Shown here: in pieces, positions 17,862 to 53,115 of the stretch
Position numbering within the stretch: position 1 is the first letter of the stretch
How the letters are laid out: every line of letters starts with the position of its first letter
NCBI GenBank assembly: GCA_934561115.1
Contig: CAKTFS010000001.1
Coordinates: 62,001-126,000, forward strand
Source: an uncultured Faecalibacterium sp.
GTDB taxonomy: Bacteria > Bacillota > Clostridia > Oscillospirales > Ruminococcaceae
Direction of reading: 5' to 3'
Length of the DNA stretch: 64,000 nt
Notes under the pieces: model-generated
The model's database searches: none
Told to the model about the DNA's origin: nothing
What the model saw: the letters and a program-made list of their open reading frames with translations, nothing else
Program-made: the position numbers and the translations under genes

Positions 17862-18617
17862 TTACAGGCGGCTGCCCAGATACGAAAGCCCTGCCGCAGC
17901 GCCGCACAGCGGCAGCAGCACCACCATGGTCAGCAGATATTGTCCCAGCAGTGCCTGAACCCCAGGGCGGGCTTGTCCGCCGGGATGTTTGCGAAAGGAA
18001 TAGGCGTGGATACGGCTGCTGACCTGCAAAGCACAAGCTCCGAAAAAACACAGGCAACCGCTTGCCGCTGCTGCCGGCAGGCCTGTCCACAGCAGCGCCA
18101 GAAGTATCGTTTTCCACCCGCCTGCTGTGCAAAGCTGTACCATAAGCAGACCGCTGCCAAGGCCATACAGCATCATGCTGCCAAAGATCATTACAGGCCC
18201 AAGGGCAGAAAGCCCCAGCACCAGAAAAAGGCTGACCACAAGGCCGAGTGTCAGGTATTCCATGCCAAAAAGCTGTACTGCCCCCTGCATACTGCCCGGT
18301 GCAAACAGCTTTTGCCACGCTTCCAGATAATACCGCAGCAGTTCTGCCTGCCGGGCATCACATACGGCCTGCAATACACCGGCTGCCGTACATCCCAGCA
18401 GAAACGCTGCAGCCAGCAGCCAGCAATCCCGGGTGGCGTGCCGCTTTGCCGGGATGCAGGGCTCTTTTGACGGCAATTGCTGCACCGGTGTCGGCGGTTC
18501 CGGTGCAGTTGCCGGTACAGTCGGCAGAGCAGATTCCGCTTTCTGTACCGGTAGGCTGACCGTCTGCGGCAGTAAAGATAAGGTTTCTTCCGGGTTAGAT
18601 TGTTCATAGATCCACAT
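17862..18617 (-). CDS. SpoIIM-like membrane protein
   Basis: 251 residues. A soluble Pro-rich N-terminus (about 1-60) is followed by four to five membrane segments from about residue 66 to the C-terminus. The topology and Gly-rich central helices (YLTLGLVVSLFLVLGLSALG, GSMMLYGLGSGLLM) resemble stage II sporulation protein M, which works with SpoIID/SpoIIP in septal peptidoglycan removal during engulfment. Position near xer and radA supports this, since spoIIM and xerD are close in B. subtilis. The start at 18617 gives the short frame; the longer one from 18896 would overlap the next gene. The call is tentative: an unrelated integral membrane protein is possible. Confidence 0.5.
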   Translation of the reverse strand: MWIYEQSNPEETLSLLPQTVSLPVQKAESALPTVPATAPEPPTPVQQLPSKEPCIPAKRHATRDCWLLAAAFLLGCTAAGVLQAVCDARQAELLRYYLEAWQKLFAPGSMQGAVQLFGMEYLTLGLVVSLFLVLGLSALGPVMIFGSMMLYGLGSGLLMVQLCTAGGWKTILLALLWTGLPAAAASGCLCFFGACALQVSSRIHAYSFRKHPGGQARPGVQALLGQYLLTMVVLLPLCGAAAGLSYLGSRL

Positions 18618-18658
18618 ACGCTGCTTTCCCCTCTGTTTCGTTCGATTTGCTGGTGCAA

Positions 18659-39883: not shown

Positions 39884-40507
39884 TTACTTTACCTCTACCA
39901 CCGTAATATTCTGGGCGGTCACACTGCTTTTGTTCATCACCACATCCCGGATCTGCGCCACCTGTGCCGCTGTGAGCGGCTCGCCTGCCGTCATCACGGT
40001 CAGGTCTGCCCGCCCCGCTTGCAAAAAGCACAGACAGTCCGCAAATCCCTTGGCACGCACCAGCGTTTCGATTTCGTTTTCTGCATTCAGGTCTTCCAGC
40101 CCTGCCGCCATTTGTGCGGTATACTCCTTTTTCTCCTCGGCTGTCAGGGAGGAAGATTTCAGGCTCTTTTGCAGCGTGTCCATGGCTTCGTCATGTGCCT
40201 TTTCCCGCTTGAGACGAGCCTGTTCAAAAAAGCGGGTGCCGCTGTCGTTTGCCACGCTGACAAGCTGTGCCTCGCCATAGTTTTTGTTGACACCGGAGGC
40301 AGCTTCCGCTTCTGTGGGCAGTGCATCTGTGATGGTGGTCTCCGCTTCTGCATCCACCGGTTCTGCCGAGACCATGAGGGTGTCGTCCTCTGTCTGCGGG
40401 GTGATGTCTGCCCGGGCATACTGCCAGTTTAAGTAGACGGCAATGACCAGCGCCGCCGCCAGCGTCAGAGCGGTGACCCTGCGGGTGTTTCTGGAAAGTG
40501 CTCTCAT
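39884..40507 (-). CDS. spoIIIAH: Stage III sporulation protein AH
   Basis: 207 residues: a basic start, one membrane segment (about 10-26, TALTLAAALVIAVYLNW), a low-complexity acidic linker, then a ring-forming YscJ-like domain with FFEQARLKREKAHDEAMDTLQKSL. It interacts with SpoIIQ across the engulfment septum. Last gene of the spoIIIA operon. Confidence 0.9.
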   Translation of the reverse strand: MRALSRNTRRVTALTLAAALVIAVYLNWQYARADITPQTEDDTLMVSAEPVDAEAETTITDALPTEAEAASGVNKNYGEAQLVSVANDSGTRFFEQARLKREKAHDEAMDTLQKSLKSSSLTAEEKKEYTAQMAAGLEDLNAENEIETLVRAKGFADCLCFLQAGRADLTVMTAGEPLTAAQVAQIRDVVMNKSSVTAQNITVVEVK

Positions 40508-40567
40508 AAAACGGTTCCTCCTTTGGTATTTCGGTAAGCGATTGCGGTACTTGACAAAAACAGCAGC

Positions 40568-41080
40568 TCAACGCTTACGCTGCTCCACACAGATGCGGTT
40601 TGTGGGCAGATCCAGCAGCGAATGTAGCAGCTCAGTGATCCGGGCTGCAACGCGGACATCTCCCCCGCCCTCACACAGCACGGCGACCCCGCAGACCTGC
40701 GGCAGATAGGTGGTCTCAGCCAGCGCAGAGCCATCCTGCAAAAGAACGTGTGTCTCCTGCTGCTGCAGATCCCCGGTCTGGGTATCTACTGCATAGATAG
40801 TCTCCTCCCCAGTGGTCAGGGTGACCATGACCGTGGTGCGCCCCGCCCCCTGCAGCTGGCTGATAAGCCCTTCCAGCTGCTGTTCCAGCTGGGTCTGGTA
40901 CTGGCTGACGGCAGTTGTTTGGGTGGTGGATACCGCCATTTTCTGCGCACTGTCTCCGGGTAAAAGCTCCGACAGTAAAAGCAGCAGCATTGCCAGCACA
41001 CCGACCGCCACTGCCAGCGAGGTGCGGTTTTTGTTGCTTTGCAGAGAGCGTAAAGCGGAAAGCAATTCATTCTTCTTCAT
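40568..41080 (-). CDS. spoIIIAG: Stage III sporulation protein AG
   Basis: 170 residues: one membrane segment (about 23-39) after a short basic N-terminus, a Thr/Gln-rich linker, and a ring-building domain with GAGRTTVMVTLTTGEETIYAVD. Forms the large ring of the feeding-tube channel. The ATG at 41080 overlaps the spoIIIAF stop; the longer frame to 41659 is a shadow of AF/AE. Confidence 0.9.
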   Translation of the reverse strand: MKKNELLSALRSLQSNKNRTSLAVAVGVLAMLLLLLSELLPGDSAQKMAVSTTQTTAVSQYQTQLEQQLEGLISQLQGAGRTTVMVTLTTGEETIYAVDTQTGDLQQQETHVLLQDGSALAETTYLPQVCGVAVLCEGGGDVRVAARITELLHSLLDLPTNRICVEQRKR

Positions 41081-41556
41081 GGTGTGCTCTCCTCCGCTGC
41101 CGTGGAAACACCCAGCGTCTGCTGCAAAAAGCTGAACACCGCCTGCTTTTGGGCGGCGGTGCAGCCCGCCGGAAAGGCTGCAACCGCTTTTTTTACCACG
41201 ACCTGCTGACCGGCTTTTTCCAACGTGATAGACACACGAATGTTCAGCCCGAATTGCCGTCGGCACTGTGCGGCGCAATATTCTTCCAGCCGGGTCTCGG
41301 CCCCGGTCAGGATCTCCGTTTCCAGTGCATCCGATTGCGCCGCAGACAGAGCCGCCGGGGCTGTATTGCCCGAAAAAGCGGTCATGATCTTGCCCGGCAG
41401 CCGTGGCAGCTGCGCAAGAAGGACTGCTAAAATATATAGCCCGGCTACGGCTTTTATGCACCGGCCTGCCCAGCTTTGCCCGCCAAAAAGGCTGACCAGC
41501 TCTGCCCCGATACACGCCATACAAAACACTGCCGCAGCCCGCTGAAATGCCTGCAT
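41077..41556 (-). CDS. spoIIIAF: Stage III sporulation protein AF
   Basis: 159 residues with two N-terminal membrane segments (about 6-22, 34-50) followed by a soluble part with ALETEILTGAETRLEEYCAAQCRRQFG. Matches SpoIIIAF in topology, length and place. Directly abuts spoIIIAE. Confidence 0.88.
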   Translation of the reverse strand: MQAFQRAAAVFCMACIGAELVSLFGGQSWAGRCIKAVAGLYILAVLLAQLPRLPGKIMTAFSGNTAPAALSAAQSDALETEILTGAETRLEEYCAAQCRRQFGLNIRVSITLEKAGQQVVVKKAVAAFPAGCTAAQKQAVFSFLQQTLGVSTAAEESTP

Positions 41557-42612
41557 CTAACCACCCCCTGTCAGCATCAGCAGCACGATGCCCACCACAA
41601 ATAACATGAAAAACAAGGCCGTAACTGCCGCCATGCAGCGCACAGCCTCGGCAAAGCATTGCAGCAGCTTATGGCAATGCTCCATCCCGCCGATCCCGGC
41701 AAGCCAGCTACAGCAGGACAGAAAAAACAGATGCACCAGCAGCCCAAGATACAAGGGTGCAAACTCTGCCCCGATGCTGAGCAATGCGGCAATGCCAAGG
41801 GTGCTTTTGAGCAGCTGCATCCCGGCCAGTACCGCGTCTGCCGCGCTGCTCAGCGCCTGCCCCACGATGGGCACGCTGCCGGTCAGCAGCTGCCCCAGAC
41901 GAGAAGCAGAGCGATCCAACTGCACCGTTACCACGCGCTGAAGGCTCATCAGGGCGGCAAACGCTTTGCCAGCCCAGCCGATAGCCTGTCGCAGCAGCCG
42001 CCCGGTCAGAGTACAGCCCTCGGACAGGCTTTTGCGGGAGCTGATGCCGCAGGCCATACTGATGGCAAGATAGCTGCGCAGCAGCGGCTGCAGCCAGAGA
42101 GTGACCGCCTGTGCAATAAAGCACAGCACCGTGAGCAGAAAGCCGTTTGCAGCCGCTCCGGCGTTCCATTCGCCACCGGCTGTCAGCACACCGCTGTATA
42201 CCGGCAAAAAGCCCAGCAGATAGCTTTTCCACCCGGCCATCCGGGTGCACAGGGCGGCGGCAAGCTTGTCCAGTTCCTGCCACAATAAAACGCCGCAGCC
42301 GCCGGCAGCTGCCAGCTCCAGCAGTGCTCTGTCAGTGGTGTCCTGCAAGAGAAATGCAAGCCCGGCAGCCATCGACAAAAACAGCATAACATCGGCATAT
42401 TGCTGCAGCACTTCCCGCAGCAATTGCACCGGCTCGGCGGCAAATAAATGCAGCAGGGTACCCAGCGGGTCTGCTGCAAACCGCTCAGCCTGTACAGGTG
42501 CTTTGTCGAGATAGGTCTGCCACGGCGCGGCTTCCGCAGCAGCTTTCAGGGTAGTTTCACTGCACAGAAAGCCCAGAGTTACCCCGCAAATGATAAGGCT
42601 GCGTTTTTTCAT
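41557..42612 (-). CDS. spoIIIAE: Stage III sporulation protein AE
   Basis: 351 residues: a probable signal peptide (KKRSLIICGVTLGFLCSETTLKAAAEA), then six to eight membrane segments. The ring/channel-associated permease-like protein of the spoIIIA complex. The ATG at 42612 overlaps the spoIIIAD stop (ATGA); the frame continuing to 43065 lies inside AD and AC. Confidence 0.9.
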   Translation of the reverse strand: MKKRSLIICGVTLGFLCSETTLKAAAEAAPWQTYLDKAPVQAERFAADPLGTLLHLFAAEPVQLLREVLQQYADVMLFLSMAAGLAFLLQDTTDRALLELAAAGGCGVLLWQELDKLAAALCTRMAGWKSYLLGFLPVYSGVLTAGGEWNAGAAANGFLLTVLCFIAQAVTLWLQPLLRSYLAISMACGISSRKSLSEGCTLTGRLLRQAIGWAGKAFAALMSLQRVVTVQLDRSASRLGQLLTGSVPIVGQALSSAADAVLAGMQLLKSTLGIAALLSIGAEFAPLYLGLLVHLFFLSCCSWLAGIGGMEHCHKLLQCFAEAVRCMAAVTALFFMLFVVGIVLLMLTGGG

Positions 42613-42992
42613 CCCACCAACCCCCAGATCGTCTGGAATATCTGTTCCAGCAGCGGCCACACTGCCGCCAGTACGAGACACCGCCCTGCCAGCCCGGCGC
42701 ACCATGCAAGGGCATCCGCTCCGGCTTCCTCGCAAAGGGTGCGGACATAATCCGCCAGCAACAGGATCCCCGCGCTGCGCAAAAGACAGGAAAAGGCCTG
42801 TGCATTGGTGCGCTGCCCCAGCTGCACCATTGCTTGCAGTACCCCGCGCAGCGGCTGAGCCAGACGGAGCAGCAGCCACACTGCAGCGCCCAGTGAAAGC
42901 AGCAGTGCAAACGCCGGGGAGTGCTTCTGCAGCAGAATCCCGGCAAAGGCTGCCAGCAGCAGCGCCACCAGCACCGGAACCGCCGTGCTCAC
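42609..42992 (-). CDS. spoIIIAD: Stage III sporulation protein AD
   Basis: 127 residues with three to four membrane segments; GTG start overlapping the spoIIIAC stop by 4 bp. The pattern LLRSAGILLLADYVRTLCEEAGADALA is characteristic of AD. Confidence 0.88.
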   Translation of the reverse strand: MSTAVPVLVALLLAAFAGILLQKHSPAFALLLSLGAAVWLLLRLAQPLRGVLQAMVQLGQRTNAQAFSCLLRSAGILLLADYVRTLCEEAGADALAWCAGLAGRCLVLAAVWPLLEQIFQTIWGLVG

Positions 42993-43183
42993 AGCGCAAA
43001 CAGAGACCGGATGGTGGCAAACAGGGCGCTGATCTGCTTGACCAGAATGGAGAGCACCACCACAAGTCCCGCCAGCGTGGTCATCATGGCCTGATCCTCC
43101 CGCCCGGAGCGGATGAGCAGCTGATTGAGTACTGCCACAATAATGCCGATGGCCGCAATTTTGAACACAAGTTCGATATCCAT
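42989..43183 (-). CDS. spoIIIAC: Stage III sporulation protein AC
   Basis: 64 residues with two membrane segments (about 3-20, 34-54) and the family core IGIIVAVLNQLLIRSGREDQA. Small membrane subunit of the SpoIIIA complex. Confidence 0.9.
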   Translation of the reverse strand: MDIELVFKIAAIGIIVAVLNQLLIRSGREDQAMMTTLAGLVVVLSILVKQISALFATIRSLFAL

Positions 43184-43210
43184 CCGTTTCTCCTTTGTTC
43201 CGTACAGCCT

Positions 43211-43675
43211 TTACAAAAAGAGCAGTGCCAGCATCATGCCGCCCGCCAGCCCAAGACGGTGCGGCAGACCGGCCTGCCGTTGCGCTGTGCGGCGCGCCTG
43301 TTGTAAATAGCCCTCAAACCGCGCTGTATAGTAGCCCAGCCGTTCGCATTCCTGTGCGGCCTCTGCGCGGCCAAGATTGCCAAAGCACTCTGTAAAACAG
43401 GCACGCTCCGCAGCGGAGAGCTGCTCCGGTGCGGGCAACTGCTGCAATGTACCGCCGGGGATTTGCGGCACAAGACCCTCGCGGCAAAGCTGCCGGTAAA
43501 GACTTTGCAGGTCTGCCCGGCGGTACTGGATCTCCTGCCGGATGCGTTGCAGCAGCTCGATGGTATGTTGCAACGCAGTGAGATGCAGGGCTGTTCTGGC
43601 TTGTACTGCGTCCCCCGCCAGCCAACCACACAGTGGGAGCAGAATCAGACCAAACCCGCGCAGAAGGCTGCTCAT
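43211..43675 (-). CDS. spoIIIAB: Stage III sporulation protein AB
   Basis: 154 residues with an N-terminal and a C-terminal membrane segment and a central helical part resembling a GspF-like domain (LLQRIRQEIQYRRADLQSLYRQL). The ATG at 43675 overlaps the spoIIIAA stop by 4 bp. Confidence 0.88.
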   Translation of the reverse strand: MSSLLRGFGLILLPLCGWLAGDAVQARTALHLTALQHTIELLQRIRQEIQYRRADLQSLYRQLCREGLVPQIPGGTLQQLPAPEQLSAAERACFTECFGNLGRAEAAQECERLGYYTARFEGYLQQARRTAQRQAGLPHRLGLAGGMMLALLFL

Positions 43676-44562
43676 ACGGCGCACACTTCCCGGATGCAGC
43701 CCGGGTTCTGCCGCCCGGTAAGGACGACCAGCTGCCGCAGCATTCCGCGTTGCAGTAAAGTCTGCACCTGCGGGCGGCATCGTGCCTGTGCAGCGTCCGG
43801 TGCGTGGATGCTGGCAATAAAGTCCACCCCGCTGAAAAAGCCCTGTTCCAGCGCCATCGTTTCCTCCAGACTGCCCAGCTCGTCCAGCAAGATCACCTGC
43901 GGCGCCAGCGTGCGCAGCGCCATCTGGACAGCACGGGCTTTATCCACCCCGCCGATGCGTTCCAGCGGCGGCAAAGGCAGCTCCGGCGGGAAAAGCTCGC
44001 CCCGCTCGTCCACTACTGCTACCAAACGCTGCCGCTCGGCCAGCGTCCGGGCAATGGTGCGCAGCAGGGTGGTCTTGCCGCTGCCGGGTTCTCCCACTAT
44101 CAGCAGCCCGGTAAAATGCTGCTCCAGCAGCTTGTCCAGCGCGGGCGGCAAAGGGATAATACAGCTGCGTGCAATCCGCAGGTTGAGCGAGGTGACCTTT
44201 TGCAGGGTAATGCTCTGCCCTTCCCGCTGCACAAACTGCCCCGCCACGCCCACGCGGTTACCGGCAGCGGTGGTCAAGTAGCCCTCGGCAAGCTCCCTTT
44301 CGTGGGTGTGCACCGAGCCATTGCAAAGCGTGTAGAAGATCTCCTCTATTTGCAGTGCATCCAGCCGTATTGCAACCAGTGCCGGTGGACAGCCCGGCAA
44401 TGCCAAAGCAGGGCATTGCCGCCCCTGTACGGTAAATGTGACCGCACAGCCTGTGCGCAGGCGCAGCTCCTGTATGTGCACTGCCGTTTGTGCGGGCAGC
44501 TGTGCCAGCGGCGCTGCCAACCAAGCGGGAAGGGCTTTGACGGTTCGGTAATACTCGTCCAC
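43672..44562 (-). CDS. spoIIIAA: Stage III sporulation protein AA (ATPase)
   Basis: 296 residues. Secretion-type ATPase that energises the SpoIIIA-SpoIIQ channel between mother cell and forespore. Walker A GEPGSGKTTLLRTIA near residue 158, Walker B ILLDELG, and the AAA-like Glu/His region (ASIHAPDAAQA). The GTG start has GGAAGGAG upstream. First gene of a complete AA-AH operon with overlapping starts and stops. A sigma-E-like -10 lies upstream. Confidence 0.93.
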   Translation of the reverse strand: MDEYYRTVKALPAWLAAPLAQLPAQTAVHIQELRLRTGCAVTFTVQGRQCPALALPGCPPALVAIRLDALQIEEIFYTLCNGSVHTHERELAEGYLTTAAGNRVGVAGQFVQREGQSITLQKVTSLNLRIARSCIIPLPPALDKLLEQHFTGLLIVGEPGSGKTTLLRTIARTLAERQRLVAVVDERGELFPPELPLPPLERIGGVDKARAVQMALRTLAPQVILLDELGSLEETMALEQGFFSGVDFIASIHAPDAAQARCRPQVQTLLQRGMLRQLVVLTGRQNPGCIREVCAV

Positions 44563-44597: not shown

Positions 44598-44605
44598 ATT
44601 GTATG
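44598..44605 (-). promoter_or_regulatory. Sigma-E-type -10 box of the spoIIIA operon
   Basis: Minus strand CATACAAT, an exact match to the B. subtilis sigma-E -10 consensus (CATACAHT), 36 bp upstream of the spoIIIAA GTG. The -35 region (GTTCTAA, spaced 14) is a poor match. In B. subtilis this operon is sigma-E dependent, so the site is credible. Confidence 0.55.
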
Positions 44606-47158: not shown

Positions 47159-48676
47159 TCAGGTGACCGGGATCAGCAGCCGCTGCGCCTGCGGCAGACA
47201 GGAAAGCTCCTCTTCCAGCTGGTTTGCTGCAAGGATCTGCGCTGGAGCCACATGGAACCGCCGTGCCACTGCAAACACCTCCTCCCCGGCCTGCGCGTAG
47301 TAGATCCGCAGCGCGATCTCGGGGTCGGTATCGGGCAGTGGGTCGCCAAGGGTGATGCTGCCTATGACCGGGCTTGTGGTGCAGCCTAAGATCGCGCCCT
47401 CTGCCCGCACGGTAATGGTAGCTTCCAGCGTACCGCCCGCACAGGTGCATTGCACGTTCTCGGTGCTCAGCCAGCATTCCGGCACAAGTGCCGTTCCCTC
47501 CGGCGGCGTAATGGGCAGTGGGACAGTGACCTCCAAGGTTTTCTCGTAGCTTTCCAGCTCACCGAGGGTATTCTCTGCAAGGGCTGTTACCACTGCTTTG
47601 GCGGCAAGCACCCAGCCCTCCCCTTTTGGGAGCGTCTGCTGGGGGCCGTAGTGCACAAAGCAGGCCCGCAGCTGTGCCCCCGCATCCGGCAGCGGGCCGG
47701 AACCTGTGGCAGTGGCAGTATCGTTCAGGGTGCAGAGCAGCTGCTCTGTGACAAGCGGCTGCGGCGTGAGCTCCGTTGCGAACCGGGTAGAAAAAGCATC
47801 CACCGCTACTTGCAGCTGGTAGCTGCGCCACGCCCGCAGATGCAGCATGACATTTGCCGTCAGCTGGGCGGCGGCGCTTTCTGCCTGCGACAGGGTAAAC
47901 CCCACCGGCTCTGCCACACATAAGCATTGGCAGTCCTCGGTGATGCCCTCCAGATCTATCACCTGCTGGAAGGGCAGCGCCGCCGCCTGACTTTGCAGGG
48001 CAGTGTCCCCTTCTGCTCGCCACGCGCACTGCACCCGCAGTTCACCCTTGACCACAGCTTTACCGGCAAGCAGCTTTACCTCCCCCACACAGGCGTTGCC
48101 GGTAATGTCCAGTACGGCAGCCGGGGGCTTTGCAAAGACCAGCTCTCCCTCCAAGGTGACCAGCTTATCCAGCACAGCCACGCTGCGTACACCCTGCAGG
48201 GTACGCAGCTGCTGCTCGATGCCACCATCCGCCAGTGCAGTAATGACCTCGGTCTTGCACTGGGTGTGCACCGTGACCACAAGCCCATAGGCACCCCGCA
48301 CCTCGATGCGGCGCGGGTCTGCCGCGCGGGTGTTGAGGTACTCTGTCTGCCCTTCCACCACAGCTGTCCATGCTGTAAATGCCAGCTCCGGCAGTTCCAG
48401 CTGCCGGGTAAAGGGCAGCTTTTGCTCGGTCTGGCACAGGCCTTTTTCTGTTTCGCTCTGGTAAAACACTGTACAGCGCAGATAGCCCTCTAAGGTAAGC
48501 CTGCCCGGCTGCAGCTGCCGCTGCAGCACCACCGGGCGGACAAAACACTTGACCAGCTTCCCCACCGGCGGCAGATCATCGGAGATGCGGATCTCGGTCT
48601 CCAGCGGAAGTTCTGCTTTTACGGTACAGCCTGCCCCGCCCTGCGGCAGCGTGTCCCGGAATATCTTCAGTTCCAT
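47159..48676 (-). CDS. SPOCS (DUF3794) repeat protein with C-terminal LysM
   Basis: 505 residues. It contains repeated beta-rich segments of the DUF3794/SPOCS type (ISDDLPPVGKLVKCFVRPVV near the start; VTLEGELVFA; repeated acidic beta blocks). It ends in a LysM domain (YYAQAGEEVFAVARRFHVAPAQILAANQLEEE). SPOCS/LysM proteins are associated with the spore coat or cortex of Clostridia. The start at 48676 is supported by GGAAAGGAG upstream; a sigma-E-type promoter precedes it. The exact function is unknown. Confidence 0.82.
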   Translation of the reverse strand: MELKIFRDTLPQGGAGCTVKAELPLETEIRISDDLPPVGKLVKCFVRPVVLQRQLQPGRLTLEGYLRCTVFYQSETEKGLCQTEQKLPFTRQLELPELAFTAWTAVVEGQTEYLNTRAADPRRIEVRGAYGLVVTVHTQCKTEVITALADGGIEQQLRTLQGVRSVAVLDKLVTLEGELVFAKPPAAVLDITGNACVGEVKLLAGKAVVKGELRVQCAWRAEGDTALQSQAAALPFQQVIDLEGITEDCQCLCVAEPVGFTLSQAESAAAQLTANVMLHLRAWRSYQLQVAVDAFSTRFATELTPQPLVTEQLLCTLNDTATATGSGPLPDAGAQLRACFVHYGPQQTLPKGEGWVLAAKAVVTALAENTLGELESYEKTLEVTVPLPITPPEGTALVPECWLSTENVQCTCAGGTLEATITVRAEGAILGCTTSPVIGSITLGDPLPDTDPEIALRIYYAQAGEEVFAVARRFHVAPAQILAANQLEEELSCLPQAQRLLIPVT

Positions 48677-48712: not shown

Positions 48713-48741
48713 AGTGTATGCGGCGGCAGGCGGCGGTATGC
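48713..48741 (-). promoter_or_regulatory. Sigma-E-type promoter of the SPOCS gene
   Basis: Minus strand GCATACC (48735-48741), 14 bp, CATACACT (48713-48720). Against the B. subtilis consensus KMATATT-N14/15-CATACAHT, the -35 matches at five of seven positions and the -10 at all eight. The -10 is 36 bp upstream of the ATG, the same distance as at spoIIIAA. Confidence 0.65.
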
Positions 48742-48748
48742 CGACAGT

Positions 48749-48790
48749 AAAAGGCCGGTGTGCAGCAGCTTTGCCACACACCGGCCTTTT
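48749..48790. terminator. Terminator between spoVM and the SPOCS gene
   Basis: A 14-bp perfect stem: 48749-48762 pairs with 48777-48790, loop of 14. On the minus strand it lies 6 bp after the spoVM stop and its arm ends with TTTT. Confidence 0.75.
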
Positions 48791-48796
48791 ATGGAT

Positions 48797-48877
48797 TCAG
48801 TTTTCTTTGCGGATGCCGAACAGCTTGCGCAGAATGCCGCACAGCGCTTTCGGGCTGCGAATGACCACTACCTGCAT
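48797..48877 (-). CDS. spoVM: Stage V sporulation protein M (SpoVM)
   Basis: A 26-codon gene, MQVVVIRSPKALCG... with Ile6, Pro9, Lys10, Leu12, Gly14, Ile15, Arg17 and Gly21. All of these equal residues at the same positions of the 26-residue B. subtilis SpoVM as I remember it (about 9 of 26 identical, same length). SpoVM is the amphipathic helix that marks the forespore membrane and recruits the coat ATPase SpoIVA; Pro9 is essential for curvature sensing there. Its place directly after thiN equals the B. subtilis order (rsgA, rpe, thiN, spoVM). A Gly-rich AAAGGCGGGGTGGAG site precedes the ATG, and a TATAAT-like box lies about 30 bp upstream. Confidence 0.85.
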   Translation of the reverse strand: MQVVVIRSPKALCGILRKLFGIRKEN

Positions 48878-48947
48878 CTCCACCCCGCCTTTCGCTCATG
48901 TTTACCCCATTATAGCGTCTGACGGGCAAAAATGTTCCGGGAAGGGT

Positions 48948-49583
48948 TCAATCTGCGACGGTCTCCACCACCACCAGTGCGCCCTGCCGGGTGCTGATGG
49001 TGATGCAGTCTGAGCCTTCGGCGTACTCGTTGCTCACGCCCAGCGGATAGCCTGCTGTGAGCACGGCATCCTCCAGCTCGTAGAAGGAGCCTTTTTCATA
49101 CACGCCCTCGGCGCGCCCCTCCATGGGGAAAGCCGAGAAGTAGAAGAACTCCTCTTTGGGATAGCGGCGGCTCTCGCCCGGCAGCACAAAAGTGATGCGG
49201 GAGCGCTCGTCCTGCAGGGCGGCGCGGATGCCGCGCTGCTCCAGTCCAAGGCCGGTACACAGGTTTGCAAGGGTATGCTCCACCCGCTTGCCGCCCAGTG
49301 CACCCAGCAAAAGCACCTCGTCAAAGCCCTTTTGCGCAGCAAGCTTTGCGGCATACTCGGTATCGGTGTCGTCCTTGACGTGGGGCAGCACTACGATATC
49401 GTCCGTATCCTGCTGCGGACAGGGAGCGGAATCAAAATCGCCTACAATGATATCCGGCTTGCAGCCCAGCCGCGCGCAGTTGCGGTAGCCTGCATCACAG
49501 GCAATGATGAAATCATCGCTGCGCAGCAGGCGTCTGAGCTCCGGCTGCACCGGGCAGGCGGAAAGGATCACACAACGGGACAT
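48948..49583 (-). CDS. thiN: Thiamine diphosphokinase
   Basis: 211 residues. CDAGYRNCARLGCKPDIIVGDFDSA is the ThiN/TPK signature; later KDDTDTEYAAKLA and LGGKRVEHTLANL. Transfers pyrophosphate from ATP to thiamine, giving ThDP, the cofactor of Dxs. In B. subtilis rpe lies between rsgA and thiN; here it is absent (18 bp gap). Confidence 0.92.
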   Translation of the reverse strand: MSRCVILSACPVQPELRRLLRSDDFIIACDAGYRNCARLGCKPDIIVGDFDSAPCPQQDTDDIVVLPHVKDDTDTEYAAKLAAQKGFDEVLLLGALGGKRVEHTLANLCTGLGLEQRGIRAALQDERSRITFVLPGESRRYPKEEFFYFSAFPMEGRAEGVYEKGSFYELEDAVLTAGYPLGVSNEYAEGSDCITISTRQGALVVVETVAD

Positions 49584-49601: not shown

Positions 49602-50480
49602 TTACACTTTCGGGCGCTGCCAGTCCTTGACATCCTTTACTTCGTCATACATGGCGCAGTAGCTGTCGTACCGGGTCTGGGAAAGCTTGCCCTCTGCCAG
49701 TGCCGCCCGCACCGCACAGCCTTTTTCGCTGCGGTGGGAGCAGCCGGTAAACTGGCACTGGCCCAGATAAGGCCCGAACTCCGGGAAGGCGTGCTCCAGA
49801 TTCTCCTTGGGGATGAACCCGGCGCGATTGGCTTCCAGGCTGGCAAAGCCCGGGGTATCGGCAATGCGTCCGCCGTAGGCTTCAAAGATGGTCACCTCGC
49901 GGGTGGTGTGGCGGCCGCGCCCCAGCTTCTGGCTGATGGCGCTGGTCTCGCGGGCAGCGTCCGGCAGCAACGCGTTCAGCAGGGTGGATTTACCCACGCC
50001 GGAGTTGCCGCAAAAGGCGCACAGCCTGCCGTTGATCCACTGCTTTACTTCGTCCAGCCCGGCACCGCTTTCGTAGTCGATGCGGATAAACGGCAGGGTG
50101 GACTTTGCGTAGGCGTTTGCCAGAAAATCCGCCTCGGCAAGGTCGCTTTTGGTGCACACCACCACCGGCTGTACGCCCTTATCCACCGCAATGGCGGAAA
50201 GCTTATCCAGCACCAAGGTGCTGGGGGTGGGCTGGGTGGTGCTTGCCACAAGGAACAGCACATCCAGATTTGCTACCGGCGGGCGCACAAAAACGTTTTT
50301 GCGGGGCGCGATCTGCGCAATGACGGCTGCGCCGTTCTCGGTTTCCAGCGTCACCTCATCCCCTGCCACGGGGGTGATCTTCTGCTTGCGGAAGATGCCG
50401 CGGGGTTTGCACTCCACGATGCCGTCCGGCGTTTTTACATAGTAAAAGCCGCCGATGCCTTTTACGATATAACCGTTCAT
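49602..50480 (-). CDS. rsgA: Ribosome small subunit GTPase RsgA
   Basis: 292 residues: N-terminal OB fold, circularly permuted GTPase (TKSD before GNSGVGKSTLLN, then DTPGF), and a C-terminal zinc site (CQFTGCSHRSEKGCAV). Assists late 30S assembly. The ATG at 50480 is chosen since GGAGG lies 6 bp upstream; the first in-frame ATG touches the ribosome site. 12 bp after prkC. Confidence 0.95.
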   Translation of the reverse strand: MNGYIVKGIGGFYYVKTPDGIVECKPRGIFRKQKITPVAGDEVTLETENGAAVIAQIAPRKNVFVRPPVANLDVLFLVASTTQPTPSTLVLDKLSAIAVDKGVQPVVVCTKSDLAEADFLANAYAKSTLPFIRIDYESGAGLDEVKQWINGRLCAFCGNSGVGKSTLLNALLPDAARETSAISQKLGRGRHTTREVTIFEAYGGRIADTPGFASLEANRAGFIPKENLEHAFPEFGPYLGQCQFTGCSHRSEKGCAVRAALAEGKLSQTRYDSYCAMYDEVKDVKDWQRPKV

Positions 50481-50492
50481 GCACATCCTCCG

Positions 50493-52373
50493 TCAGCCCA
50501 GCAGCGAGGACCACCAGTCCAGAATACCGCCGCCGGTGGAACTGCTGGAGCCCGGCTCGCCGCTGCCGCCGGTGCTCTCGCCGCCGGTAGAGCCTTCGCC
50601 AGTGGTGCCGGAAGTGCCATCACTGCCCGGCTGCTCCGGTTCCTGCACCGGTGCAGCGCCTGCGCTGACCACAACGTTTACGCGGCTGTTCAGCTTCGCG
50701 GTAGTACCTGCCGCCGGATTCTGACTGAGCACCGTACCTGCGGGCTGGTCGCTGTATTCCTCGCTCTGGCTGCCAAGGCCCAGATGGTTCTGTACCAGCA
50801 GGGTGCGGGCATCATCCACGCTCATGCCGGTAAGCGAGGGCACCTTGGTGGTAGTGGCTACCTGCGGACGGCTGATATAGATAATGACCGTGGAGCCAGC
50901 TGCCACCTGCGTACCGGCGGCGGGGTCGGTGCGGATGACCGCGCCGGAGGCCACCGAGGTATCCACAGCCTGCGTGACCAGCACCGAAACGCCCAGTGCC
51001 TTGAGCTGCTGCTCCGCATCGGACTGCACATAGTTGGTCAGGTCCGGCACAGTGACATACTGGGTACCCAGACTGACGGTCAAGGTCACGCTCTGACCCT
51101 CGCGGACGGTACGGCCGGACACCGGCGACTGCTTATAGATATAACCGGCTGCATAGTTGCTGTTATACTCTTCTGCCCACTCGGGAGAGATCTGGCCGGA
51201 TGCGATCTGATCCGTAGCCATGGCCTGCTCCTTGGTCATGCCAATATAGTCTCCAAGGGTGACATCGGCCTTGTTGTTCATCAGGTTGGAGGAGTCGTTC
51301 AGGATCATCCAGCACAGTGCCATGCAGGCCAGTGCAAAGGCAATGGTGATGCCGAACAAGGCAGGCAAAAAGACAGTGCGGCGCTTTTTACCCGGCTTGC
51401 TTTTGCCGTTTTTGCGGGGGGCGGGCTGTTCGTTCTGACGGATCGCGCGGTTCTGGTTCATGGTACGTTTCACCACCTTTTCGGGTGCTTCTTCTGTAAT
51501 ATACTGATATTCAAACAGCACGGAGGGGTTCTGCACATAGGTATCCAGTGCTTCCAGCATCGCCCGTGCCGAGGGGTAGCGGTTCTGGGGGAGCTTTGCC
51601 ATGGCCTTTTCGGTGATTTCCACCAATGCATAGGGCACCTCCGGTGCCAGCTCGTGCAGCGAGCGGGGCTCGTCCGAGATCTGCTTGATGGCAACCTCTA
51701 CCACGTCGTCGGCATCAAAGGGCAGATGTCCGGAAAGCATCTCGTACATCATAACACCTACCGAGTAGATGTCGCTGGTGCGGTCGGTCTCGTCCCCTTT
51801 TGCCTGCTCCGGACTGATATAATGCACACTGCCCATCGCCTTGCCGGCCAGCATCTGGTTATCTGCCCGGGAAATGCGGGCGATGCCGAAGTCCATCATG
51901 CGCAGCTGGCCGTTATCCAGCAGCATAATATTCTGGGGCTTGATATCCCGGTGCACGATGCCGTTGGCGTGGGCGTGCTCCAGCGCTTTAAGGATCTGGG
52001 AGATAAAGTGCACGGTCTCCCGGCTGGAAAGCTTGCCGCCACGCTCGTTGAGGTACTCCCGCAAGGTCATTCCATCCACATACTCCATAACGATATATTG
52101 CAGATGATCGTTGACCGAAACATCGTACACCTTGACGATGTTGGGGTGGTTCAGCAGCGAGATGGCCTTGGATTCGTTTTTAAAGCGGCGCACAAGATCC
52201 GGGTCGTGCATATACTCCTGCCGCAGCACCTTGACAGCCACCACAGTCCCGGCGGGCACGGGGCCGTTCTGTCCCCGCATGACCGCCTTATACACATTGG
52301 CCATGCCGCCGGAGCCGATCAGCTCCTGCACCTCGTACAGGCCGTCCAGTCTTTTACCGATCAGGTTATCCAT
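50493..52373 (-). CDS. prkC: PASTA-domain Ser/Thr kinase (PrkC/Stk1)
   Basis: 626 residues. N-terminal kinase with IGSGGMANVY, AVKVL Lys, HRDIKPQN and DFGIAR; a juxtamembrane basic stretch; one membrane segment (about 343-366); three PASTA repeats that bind muropeptides; and a C-terminal Gly/Ser/Thr-rich tail of about 35 residues. Senses cell wall state and, in Bacillus, germination signals. Overlaps the phosphatase gene by 8 bp. Confidence 0.96.
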   Translation of the reverse strand: MDNLIGKRLDGLYEVQELIGSGGMANVYKAVMRGQNGPVPAGTVVAVKVLRQEYMHDPDLVRRFKNESKAISLLNHPNIVKVYDVSVNDHLQYIVMEYVDGMTLREYLNERGGKLSSRETVHFISQILKALEHAHANGIVHRDIKPQNIMLLDNGQLRMMDFGIARISRADNQMLAGKAMGSVHYISPEQAKGDETDRTSDIYSVGVMMYEMLSGHLPFDADDVVEVAIKQISDEPRSLHELAPEVPYALVEITEKAMAKLPQNRYPSARAMLEALDTYVQNPSVLFEYQYITEEAPEKVVKRTMNQNRAIRQNEQPAPRKNGKSKPGKKRRTVFLPALFGITIAFALACMALCWMILNDSSNLMNNKADVTLGDYIGMTKEQAMATDQIASGQISPEWAEEYNSNYAAGYIYKQSPVSGRTVREGQSVTLTVSLGTQYVTVPDLTNYVQSDAEQQLKALGVSVLVTQAVDTSVASGAVIRTDPAAGTQVAAGSTVIIYISRPQVATTTKVPSLTGMSVDDARTLLVQNHLGLGSQSEEYSDQPAGTVLSQNPAAGTTAKLNSRVNVVVSAGAAPVQEPEQPGSDGTSGTTGEGSTGGESTGGSGEPGSSSSTGGGILDWWSSLLG

Positions 52374-53115
52374 GGCGCACCTCCATCGGCTCTACCCCCA
52401 CCAGCAGGGCGGTGATATTGTCCGGGCCGCCGTTTTCGTTGGCGGTGCGGATCAGAACATCCGGCAAATCGTAAAAAGACCCGCTGCGCAGCAGCTGCTC
52501 CAGCTGCTCTGTGGGCACGGCATTGGTCAGACCGTCCGTGCACAGCAGCAGAACATCCCCTGCCTGCAGCGCTACGGTGGTGAACTCCGGCTCCAGCCGG
52601 TAATCCACGCCCAGCGCCCGGGTGATGATGTTTTTCTGCGGGTGATGCTCTGCCTGCTCCTGCGTAATGGTGCCGCAGTCCACCAGCTCCTGCACATAGG
52701 AGTGGTCGTGGGTCAGCTGCACCAGCTTACCGTCCCGGTAGAGATAGGCGCGGGAATCTCCCGCATGGCTCAGGTAGGCCTTGCCGCCGCGCACCAGAGC
52801 GCAGACGGCGGTGGTGCCCATACCGGCCAGAGACTCCTCCCGCAGCGCCTTCTGGAACACATAGCGATTGGCGCTGAGCAACGCCTTTTTTAAAAAGGTC
52901 TCCTCTTCGCCGGGAATGCACTGGCTGTACTGCTCCTGAAAGCAGCGCTCGATGACGCTGCACGCACACTGCGAGGCTTCCCGCCCGCCGCGTGCGCCGC
53001 CCATGCCATCGCATACCAGCGCCCATGCTGCATCGCCGGGCAGCTCCCCGGCACGGTAATCATCCTGATTGTCCTGCCGGACGCGTCCTACATCCGTTTT
53101 TCCTGCAAGTTTCAT
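52366..53115 (-). CDS. prpC: PP2C-type Ser/Thr phosphatase (PrpC/Stp1)
   Basis: 249 residues. PP2C motifs: NQDDY, CDGMGGARGG, SHAGDSRAYLY, LLCTDGLTN, GGPDNITALL, with metal-binding Asp residues. Reverses PrkC phosphorylation. Confidence 0.95.
   Translation of the reverse strand: MKLAGKTDVGRVRQDNQDDYRAGELPGDAAWALVCDGMGGARGGREASQCACSVIERCFQEQYSQCIPGEEETFLKKALLSANRYVFQKALREESLAGMGTTAVCALVRGGKAYLSHAGDSRAYLYRDGKLVQLTHDHSYVQELVDCGTITQEQAEHHPQKNIITRALGVDYRLEPEFTTVALQAGDVLLLCTDGLTNAVPTEQLEQLLRSGSFYDLPDVLIRTANENGGPDNITALLVGVEPMEVRHG

What the first reader, a model, noticed from the sequence alone, without database searches (positions are those of the whole stretch)
48797..48877. Unannotated 26-codon spoVM found by sequence and synteny
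The minus strand downstream of thiN encodes a 26-residue peptide sharing about nine residues in register with B. subtilis SpoVM, including the essential Pro9. It sits at the B. subtilis position and has its own terminator. Automatic callers usually miss genes this short. Together with spoIIIA it argues that engulfment and coat-base functions are retained.
Basis: partly seen in the sequence, partly recalled or inferred. Interest (0 to 1): 0.8.

Follow-up and report, generated by a model that had tools for sequence, protein, structure and literature searches.

The report
Faecalibacterium spore-coat peptide gene spoVM
The window holds a real 26-amino-acid spore-coat anchoring gene, kept intact across a gut genus whose ability to make spores is disputed: an ordinary gene in a puzzling place.

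Summary
Window 48797-48877 (-) encodes MQVVVIRSPKALCGILRKLFGIRKEN, which passes NCBI's SpoVM equivalog model (35.4 bits, cut-off 31) and shares 9 of 26 residues, Pro9 included, with B. subtilis SpoVM (PDB 2mvh). Named matches place the window in Faecalibacterium, near F. prausnitzii. All 31 same-genus genomes searched carry the frame: 30 complete, 1 cut by a contig end. It is under purifying selection, has a promoter-like pair with a 14-nt gap in 31 of 31 sequences, and a strong terminator-like hairpin. In 14 of 31 relatives spoVM, sipL and spoIVA are consecutive; SpoIVA is found in 31 of 31. So it is a new member of a known kind, and the coat-base genes are retained. The unexpected part lies outside the coordinates: the genus keeps Spo0A, SpoIID, SigG-like and SpoVAD-like proteins and the coat base, but 0 of 31 genomes show an alpha/beta SASP, against 18 of 20 related genomes. 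Whether a spore is built is not shown.

The parts
48797..48877 (-). spoVM, 26 codons plus TGA
   Evidence: NF033436 35.4 bits over cut-off 31; complete in 30 of 31 same-genus genomes
48883..48893 (-). Shine-Dalgarno-like GAAAGGCGGGG before the ATG
   Evidence: sequence; GAAAGG stands in the 25 nt before the ATG in all 30 complete same-genus copies (by eye)
48909..48937 (-). conserved promoter-like pair GAACATT-N14-GCTATAAT (sigma-E-like by recalled consensus)
   Evidence: ACATTTT-to-TATAAT gap of 14 in 31 of 31 sequences while the distance to the ATG varies 23-39 nt; sigma-E consensus score 11 of 15, weak on its own: 96 sites of 11 or more in the window with gaps of 13-15, 24 of them with gap 14
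48748..48791 (-). terminator-like hairpin after spoVM
   Evidence: -35.5 kcal/mol, z -8.0 against 200 shuffles
48713..48741 (-). sigma-E-like promoter of sipL, GCATACC-N14-CATACACT
   Evidence: best match (13 of 15) in the whole 64-kb window, both strands; 36 bp before the sipL ATG; consensus recalled
47159..48676 (-). sipL (SPOCS domain, LysM-like C terminus), 505 aa
   Evidence: PF12673 SipL 69.6 bits over cut-off 23.6; LysM models at residues 459-505 below their cut-offs; matched in 37 of 37 genomes
48948..49583 (-). thiN, thiamine diphosphokinase
   Evidence: TIGR01378 135.9 bits over cut-off
49602..50486 (-). rsgA
   Evidence: TIGR00157 199 bits over cut-off
50493..52373 (-). PASTA Ser/Thr kinase (prkC-like)
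   Evidence: NF033483 522.9 bits over cut-off
52366..53115 (-). PP2C phosphatase (stp/prpC-like)
   Evidence: PF13672 80.4 bits over cut-off
39884..44562 (-). spoIIIA operon AA to AH
   Evidence: Pfam over cut-off for AA, AB, AC, AD, AE, AH; AF and AG by position only, no Pfam hit; AA is below its NCBIfam cut-off (144 of 281.3 bits); CATACAAT sigma-E-like -10 ending at 44598

Best explanation
This is spoVM of a Faecalibacterium close to F. prausnitzii, a real gene under selection. Its product most likely works as in B. subtilis and C. difficile: a small helix, kinked at Pro9, that sits on the outer forespore membrane and binds the ATPase SpoIVA through Ile6. SpoIVA is also held by SipL, and the three form the base layer of a coat. 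Shown here: the gene, its conservation, the selection on it, the neighbouring sipL, and spoIVA in all 31 same-genus relatives, with the glycine that pairs with Ile6 where it was read. Inferred: sigma-E control in the mother cell, membrane targeting, binding. Not shown: that Faecalibacterium ever completes a spore.
For: Equivalog model over cut-off. Complete ATG-started frame of 24-30 codons in 30 of 31 same-genus genomes, the other cut at a contig end. Over 27 distinct coding sequences, mean pS 0.58 against pN 0.17; 148 of 281 differing codons are synonymous, against 80 +/- 7 in 2000 randomisations, none reaching it. Promoter-like gap of 14 nt in 31 of 31. SipL next door. SpoIVA in 31 of 31, split over two contigs in G003. 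spoVM-sipL-spoIVA consecutive in 14 of 31 same-genus genomes, G003 and G018 broken by contig ends (positions). SpoIVA reads GLIC(I/F) at its end in 14 of the 15 loci given (the 15th, L091, returned no line), from 12 genomes; counted back from the end, the glycine falls at profile position 486 (L064 is cut at the locus end). The Ile6-Gly486 pairing and Pro9 kink are from passages of PMC5607322.
Against: Residue 2 is Gln here and in 28 of 30 complete genus peptides, against Lys in 18 of 20 from other genera; K2A stops cortex production in B. subtilis (PMC5607322, legend passage). The helix's hydrophobic moment is no better than shuffles (0.405 against mean 0.35; 36% reach it), while 4.5% reach that of B. 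subtilis SpoVM. In C. difficile SpoVM is largely dispensable (PMC5607322, title and abstract passage). No expression data. In 9 of 31 genomes none of the three genes are adjacent. The sigma-E match of spoVM is weak by score.
Confidence: 0.9

Rival explanations
1. It is spoVM, but a passive relic in a lineage that has lost sporulation.
For: Faecalibacterium is listed among genera that lost endospore formation (PMC8196900, passage). No alpha/beta SASP in 31 of 31; SpoIIM matched in 6 of 23, all below cut-off; Spo0A not found in G017, SigG-like not found in G013 and G019, SpoVAD not in G009, GPR not in G009 and G028, though most of these genomes are incomplete (G028 is 99% complete).
Against: Purifying selection over genus-wide divergence, the fixed promoter-like gap, no broken copy among 30 complete ones, and spoIVA, sipL and SpoVAD kept (31 of 31, 31 of 31, 19 of 20).
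Confidence: 0.07
2. The module is kept for a non-classical product: a coated forespore-like cell without SASP-bound DNA, or another use of the coat base.
For: Coat base, Spo0A (22 of 23 over cut-off), SigG-like (29 of 31, none over cut-off), SpoIID (20 of 20 matched, 8 over cut-off) and SpoVAD (19 of 20 matched, none over cut-off) are kept while alpha/beta SASP is not found.
Against: GPR, the SASP protease, is kept over cut-off in 18 of 20, which suggests that divergent SASP-like substrates may exist below detection. Nothing seen shows such a cell.
Confidence: 0.15
3. Chance open frame downstream of thiN.
For: Only 26 codons, lying in GC-rich DNA with many open frames.
Against: Model score, conservation, selection and frame-specific codon pattern: the shifted frames give pS 0.27 against pN 0.26 and pS 0.13 against pN 0.32, with stops in 18 of 27 and 2 of 27.
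Confidence: 0.01

Closest known systems
Bacillus subtilis SpoVM (PDB 2mvh)
   Same: 26 residues, 9 identical in register, among them Ile6, Pro9, Gly14, Ile15, Arg17, Gly21; downstream of thiN (B. subtilis gene order recalled)
   Different: Gln2 instead of Lys2; Ser8 instead of Leu8; hydrophobic moment not above shuffles; sipL downstream
Clostridioides difficile SpoVM with SpoIVA and SipL
   Same: SpoIVA and SipL as partners, SipL being found in Clostridia (PMC5607322, abstract and passages)
   Different: Passages put C. difficile spoVM near rpmB and downstream of a 50-aa gene; its SpoIVA has Asn where relatives of the window have Gly
Other spoVM loci with the same cluster: Gemmiger sp. An50 and An87 (L115, L117), Candidatus Fournierella merdavium (L163), uncultured Flavonifractor (L134), Candidatus Intestinimonas (L161)
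   Same: rsgA, spoVM, sipL, spoIVA in this order, thiN too in all but L161
   Different: in the window spoIVA does not follow sipL

Membership tests
SpoVM (NF033436) | score over the curated equivalog cut-off over the full length | tested here: met
   35.4 bits, cut-off 31, positions 1-26 of 26
SpoVM (NF033436) | Pro9 | tested here: met
   P9 in the window and all 30 complete genus peptides, 19 of 20 from other genera
SpoVM (NF033436) | amphipathic helix | tested here: inconclusive
   moment 0.405, 36% of shuffles reach it; net charge +5; no structure predicted (peptide below the 30-residue limit)
SpoVM (NF033436) | partner SpoIVA in the genome | tested here: met
   31 of 31 same-genus genomes; the window's own assembly is not held, so this is by relatives
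SpoVM (NF033436) | mother-cell sigma-E transcription | tested here: inconclusive
   conserved promoter-like pair, consensus score modest, consensus recalled
SpoVM (NF033436) | localises to curved forespore membrane and recruits SpoIVA | not testable with these tools
   needs cells or vesicles
SipL (neighbour) | SPOCS domain | tested here: met
   PF12673 69.6 bits, cut-off 23.6
SipL (neighbour) | C-terminal LysM domain | tested here: inconclusive
   two LysM models match residues 459-505 below their cut-offs (23.4 of 36 and 21.5 of 29.3 bits)

The most novel reading that the evidence does not exclude
Faecalibacterium runs a Spo0A- and sigma-factor-driven programme that still builds a SpoVM-SpoIVA-SipL-coated internal cell, but one without classical alpha/beta SASP-bound DNA: a cryptic, non-classical resting or transmission form in a common human gut bacterium.
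Probability: 0.15. Interest if true: 0.8.

Novelty: new member of a known kind. Interest (0 to 1): 0.38.

Why it matters
The papers I saw disagree on whether Faecalibacterium forms spores: PMC8196900 says that it lost the ability, PMC8953710 calls F. prausnitzii a spore-former (one passage each). A selected spoVM with its own promoter-like pair, next to sipL, gives a direct handle: a reporter or tagged SpoVM would show whether a forespore ever forms.

Tried and rejected
Rejected: chance frame; loss of spoVM in G005, G012, G018 and G021, where the family search found nothing, but reading downstream of thiN showed intact genes in three, and G018 has a copy cut by a contig end; loss of SpoIIM as a firm claim, because weak hits in 6 of 23, such as G001 (22.6 bits) and G023 (23.5 bits), suggest a diverged gene. 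From its place next to yajC I inferred that the matching stretch of the window is near 17862-18620, but Pfam gave no hit there.

Led nowhere: PDB search with the window peptide (no hit); Pfam with it (none); a regular-expression search for rpmB near 80 loci found none, and I do not trust the expression enough to claim absence; literature searches for Faecalibacterium with SpoVM (0 papers), with SpoIVA (1 paper, listing only) and with small acid-soluble (3 papers, listing only, except that PMC8953710 was read for Faecalibacterium passages). PMC8340488 (passages and section 5) names Faecalibacterium only in its reference list; PMC4890681 and PMC5814915 (passages) gave no sporulation result for it; PMC12536801 and PMC11536998 (term searches) do not name it. 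No structure was predicted: the peptide is below the 30-residue limit.

The sigma-E consensus is recalled. In one search the -35 was the best of 12 positions (4 to 7 of 7 matches) and the -10 pattern admitted variants. SASP absence rests on PF00269 at E <= 0.001 after a first-look filter. Searches used 28 of the 61 genomes (20 of 31 of the genus, picked mostly for completeness; G004 and G013, also above 90%, were left out); drew 23 of 31 of the genus; only for SASP were the other 8 searched too.

Full report
What is there. The minus strand at 48797-48877 reads ATG...TGA with 26 codons, MQVVVIRSPKALCGILRKLFGIRKEN. NCBIfam's equivalog model for SpoVM matches it end to end at 35.4 bits, cut-off 31, E = 8e-9. 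'Unannotated' cannot be tested, because no annotation is given, and the B. subtilis gene order is recalled.

Where it is. The window's own assembly is not held. In the four genomes with an identical peptide (L024-L027) RsgA, ThiN and SipL are 95.7-99.2% identical to the window's.

Conservation. The family search found NF033436 at E <= 0.001 in 47 of 61 related genomes, 30 of 61 over the cut-off; of 14 control genomes only B. subtilis rang. In the same genus it listed 27 of 31. For the four missing ones I located thiN. G005, G012 and G021 have intact spoVM genes just after it. G018's copy is cut by a contig end next to sipL. Thus 30 of 31 are complete and 1 is a fragment; none of the complete ones is broken. 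Pro9 is kept in all 30 and in 19 of the 20 peptides read from other genera, the exception being G060, which has Ser. Gln stands at position 2 in 28 of 30 genus peptides, against Lys in 18 of 20 others.

Selection. Over 27 distinct sequences (31 rows, identical ones dropped; codons 2-24) the mean synonymous difference is 0.58 and the nonsynonymous 0.17. Of 281 codons differing from the consensus 148 are synonymous, against 80 +/- 7 when the same base changes are placed at random, 0 of 2000 reaching 148. Reading the same DNA one or two bases out of frame removes the pattern.

Signals. A pair ACATTTT (4 to 7 of 7 matches) and TATAAT-like lies upstream with a gap of exactly 14 in 31 of 31 sequences (30 genomes plus the window), while its distance to the ATG varies between 23 and 39 nt. 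Read with the recalled sigma-E consensus it is GAACATT-N14-GCTATAAT, 11 of 15. Such a score is common by itself (96 sites of 11 or more in the window with gaps of 13-15, 24 of them with gap 14), so the weight rests on conservation. The best sigma-E-like site of the whole window, 13 of 15, stands 36 bp before the next gene, sipL, and a CATACAAT -10 precedes spoIIIAA. After spoVM comes a 20-bp hairpin, -35.5 kcal/mol, z -8.0.

The gene after spoVM is SipL (PF12673, 69.6 bits). PMC5607322 (abstract and passages) states that SipL is conserved only in the Clostridia and is required for C. difficile coat formation, and that in B. subtilis SpoVM binding to SpoIVA depends on Ile6 and Gly486. SipL matches in 37 of 37 family genomes searched and SpoIVA in 31 of 31 of the genus and 59 of 61 in all. 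From the positions I counted by hand: spoVM-sipL-spoIVA consecutive in 14 of 31 same-genus genomes (G003 and G018 broken by contig ends); spoVM-sipL only in 5; sipL-spoIVA only in 3 (G020, G024, G028; G028 also has a second, contig-cut sipL start beside spoVM); none adjacent in 9. Among the 80 named loci, sipL follows spoVM in 14 and spoIVA follows sipL in 8, three of these 8 being Faecalibacterium. The queries came from two genera and some loci are short, so these are lower bounds. In 14 of 15 SpoIVA loci given (12 genomes; L091 returned no line) the C terminus reads GLIC(I/F), the glycine at profile position 486 counted from the end, unlike the Asn reported for C. difficile.

Does the rest of the programme exist? 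In the genus: Spo0A over cut-off in 22 of 23 genomes, not in G017. A SigG-like protein of 333.9 bits or more in 29 of 31, not in G013 and G019, with a TAG inside the G018 match; none of the 61 genomes, other genera included, reaches the curated 457. SpoIID is matched in 20 of 20, 8 over cut-off. SpoVAD is matched in 19 of 20, none over cut-off, not in G009. GPR is over cut-off in 18 of 20, not in G009 and G028; the genus matches end by profile position 229 of 306, and those of two other-family genomes, G049 and G050, end at 234 and 237. The window has spoIIIAA to AH, six of the eight with Pfam support. SpoIIM is matched weakly in 6 of 23. The alpha/beta SASP family PF00269 is found in 0 of 31, against 6 of 6 genomes from other genera of the family and 12 of 14 of the order.

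Reading. It is SpoVM, and it most likely anchors SpoIVA on a forespore. The genus-wide selection says that the gene is used. What it is used for in bacteria reported to have lost sporulation (PMC8196900, passage) or to be spore-formers (PMC8953710, passage) is open. PMC3533761 (passages) notes that SpoVM is rarely recognised in annotation, that it was found in some but not all clostridia, and that SASP genes are easily lost. Kept GPR argues that SASP-like substrates may still exist, so the SASP-less reading stays at 0.15.

Novelty. A new member of a known kind. The spoVM-sipL-spoIVA cluster and the missing SASPs were not seen in the listings or passages of my literature searches, which cover open-licence papers only; most of the listed papers were not opened.

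Noticed in passing
genus-wide, G001-G031: No alpha/beta SASP (PF00269) in 31 of 31 same-genus genomes, against 6 of 6 same-family and 12 of 14 same-order genomes with one, although the SASP protease GPR is kept in 18 of 20.
   Followed up: partly
window 17862-18620, minus strand (approximate): Membrane protein next to yajC that may be a diverged SpoIIM: TIGR02831 hits at what I take for the matching place in G001 and G023 score only 22.6 and 23.5 bits, and Pfam has no hit for the window's protein.
   Followed up: partly
L079 and L080, downstream of spoVM: In G012 a small Phd/Fic-like pair (19 and 20.4 bits, below cut-offs; the second protein given only in part) lies after spoVM, with a similar remnant in G005; both have sipL a few kb away, as if an insertion had split the pair.
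   Followed up: partly
L034 (G060): SpoVM-like peptide (28.1 bits, below cut-off) with Ser instead of Pro at position 9, yet beside thiN, sipL and spoIVA.
   Followed up: no
L006 (G028): A second sipL start (60% identity over 43 residues) at a contig end beside spoVM, while a full sipL lies next to spoIVA on another contig.
   Followed up: no
L179, L184: A spoIIGA-like gene, a sigma factor and the SigG-like gene stand in a row in G006 and G010; the first two names are by eye.
   Followed up: no
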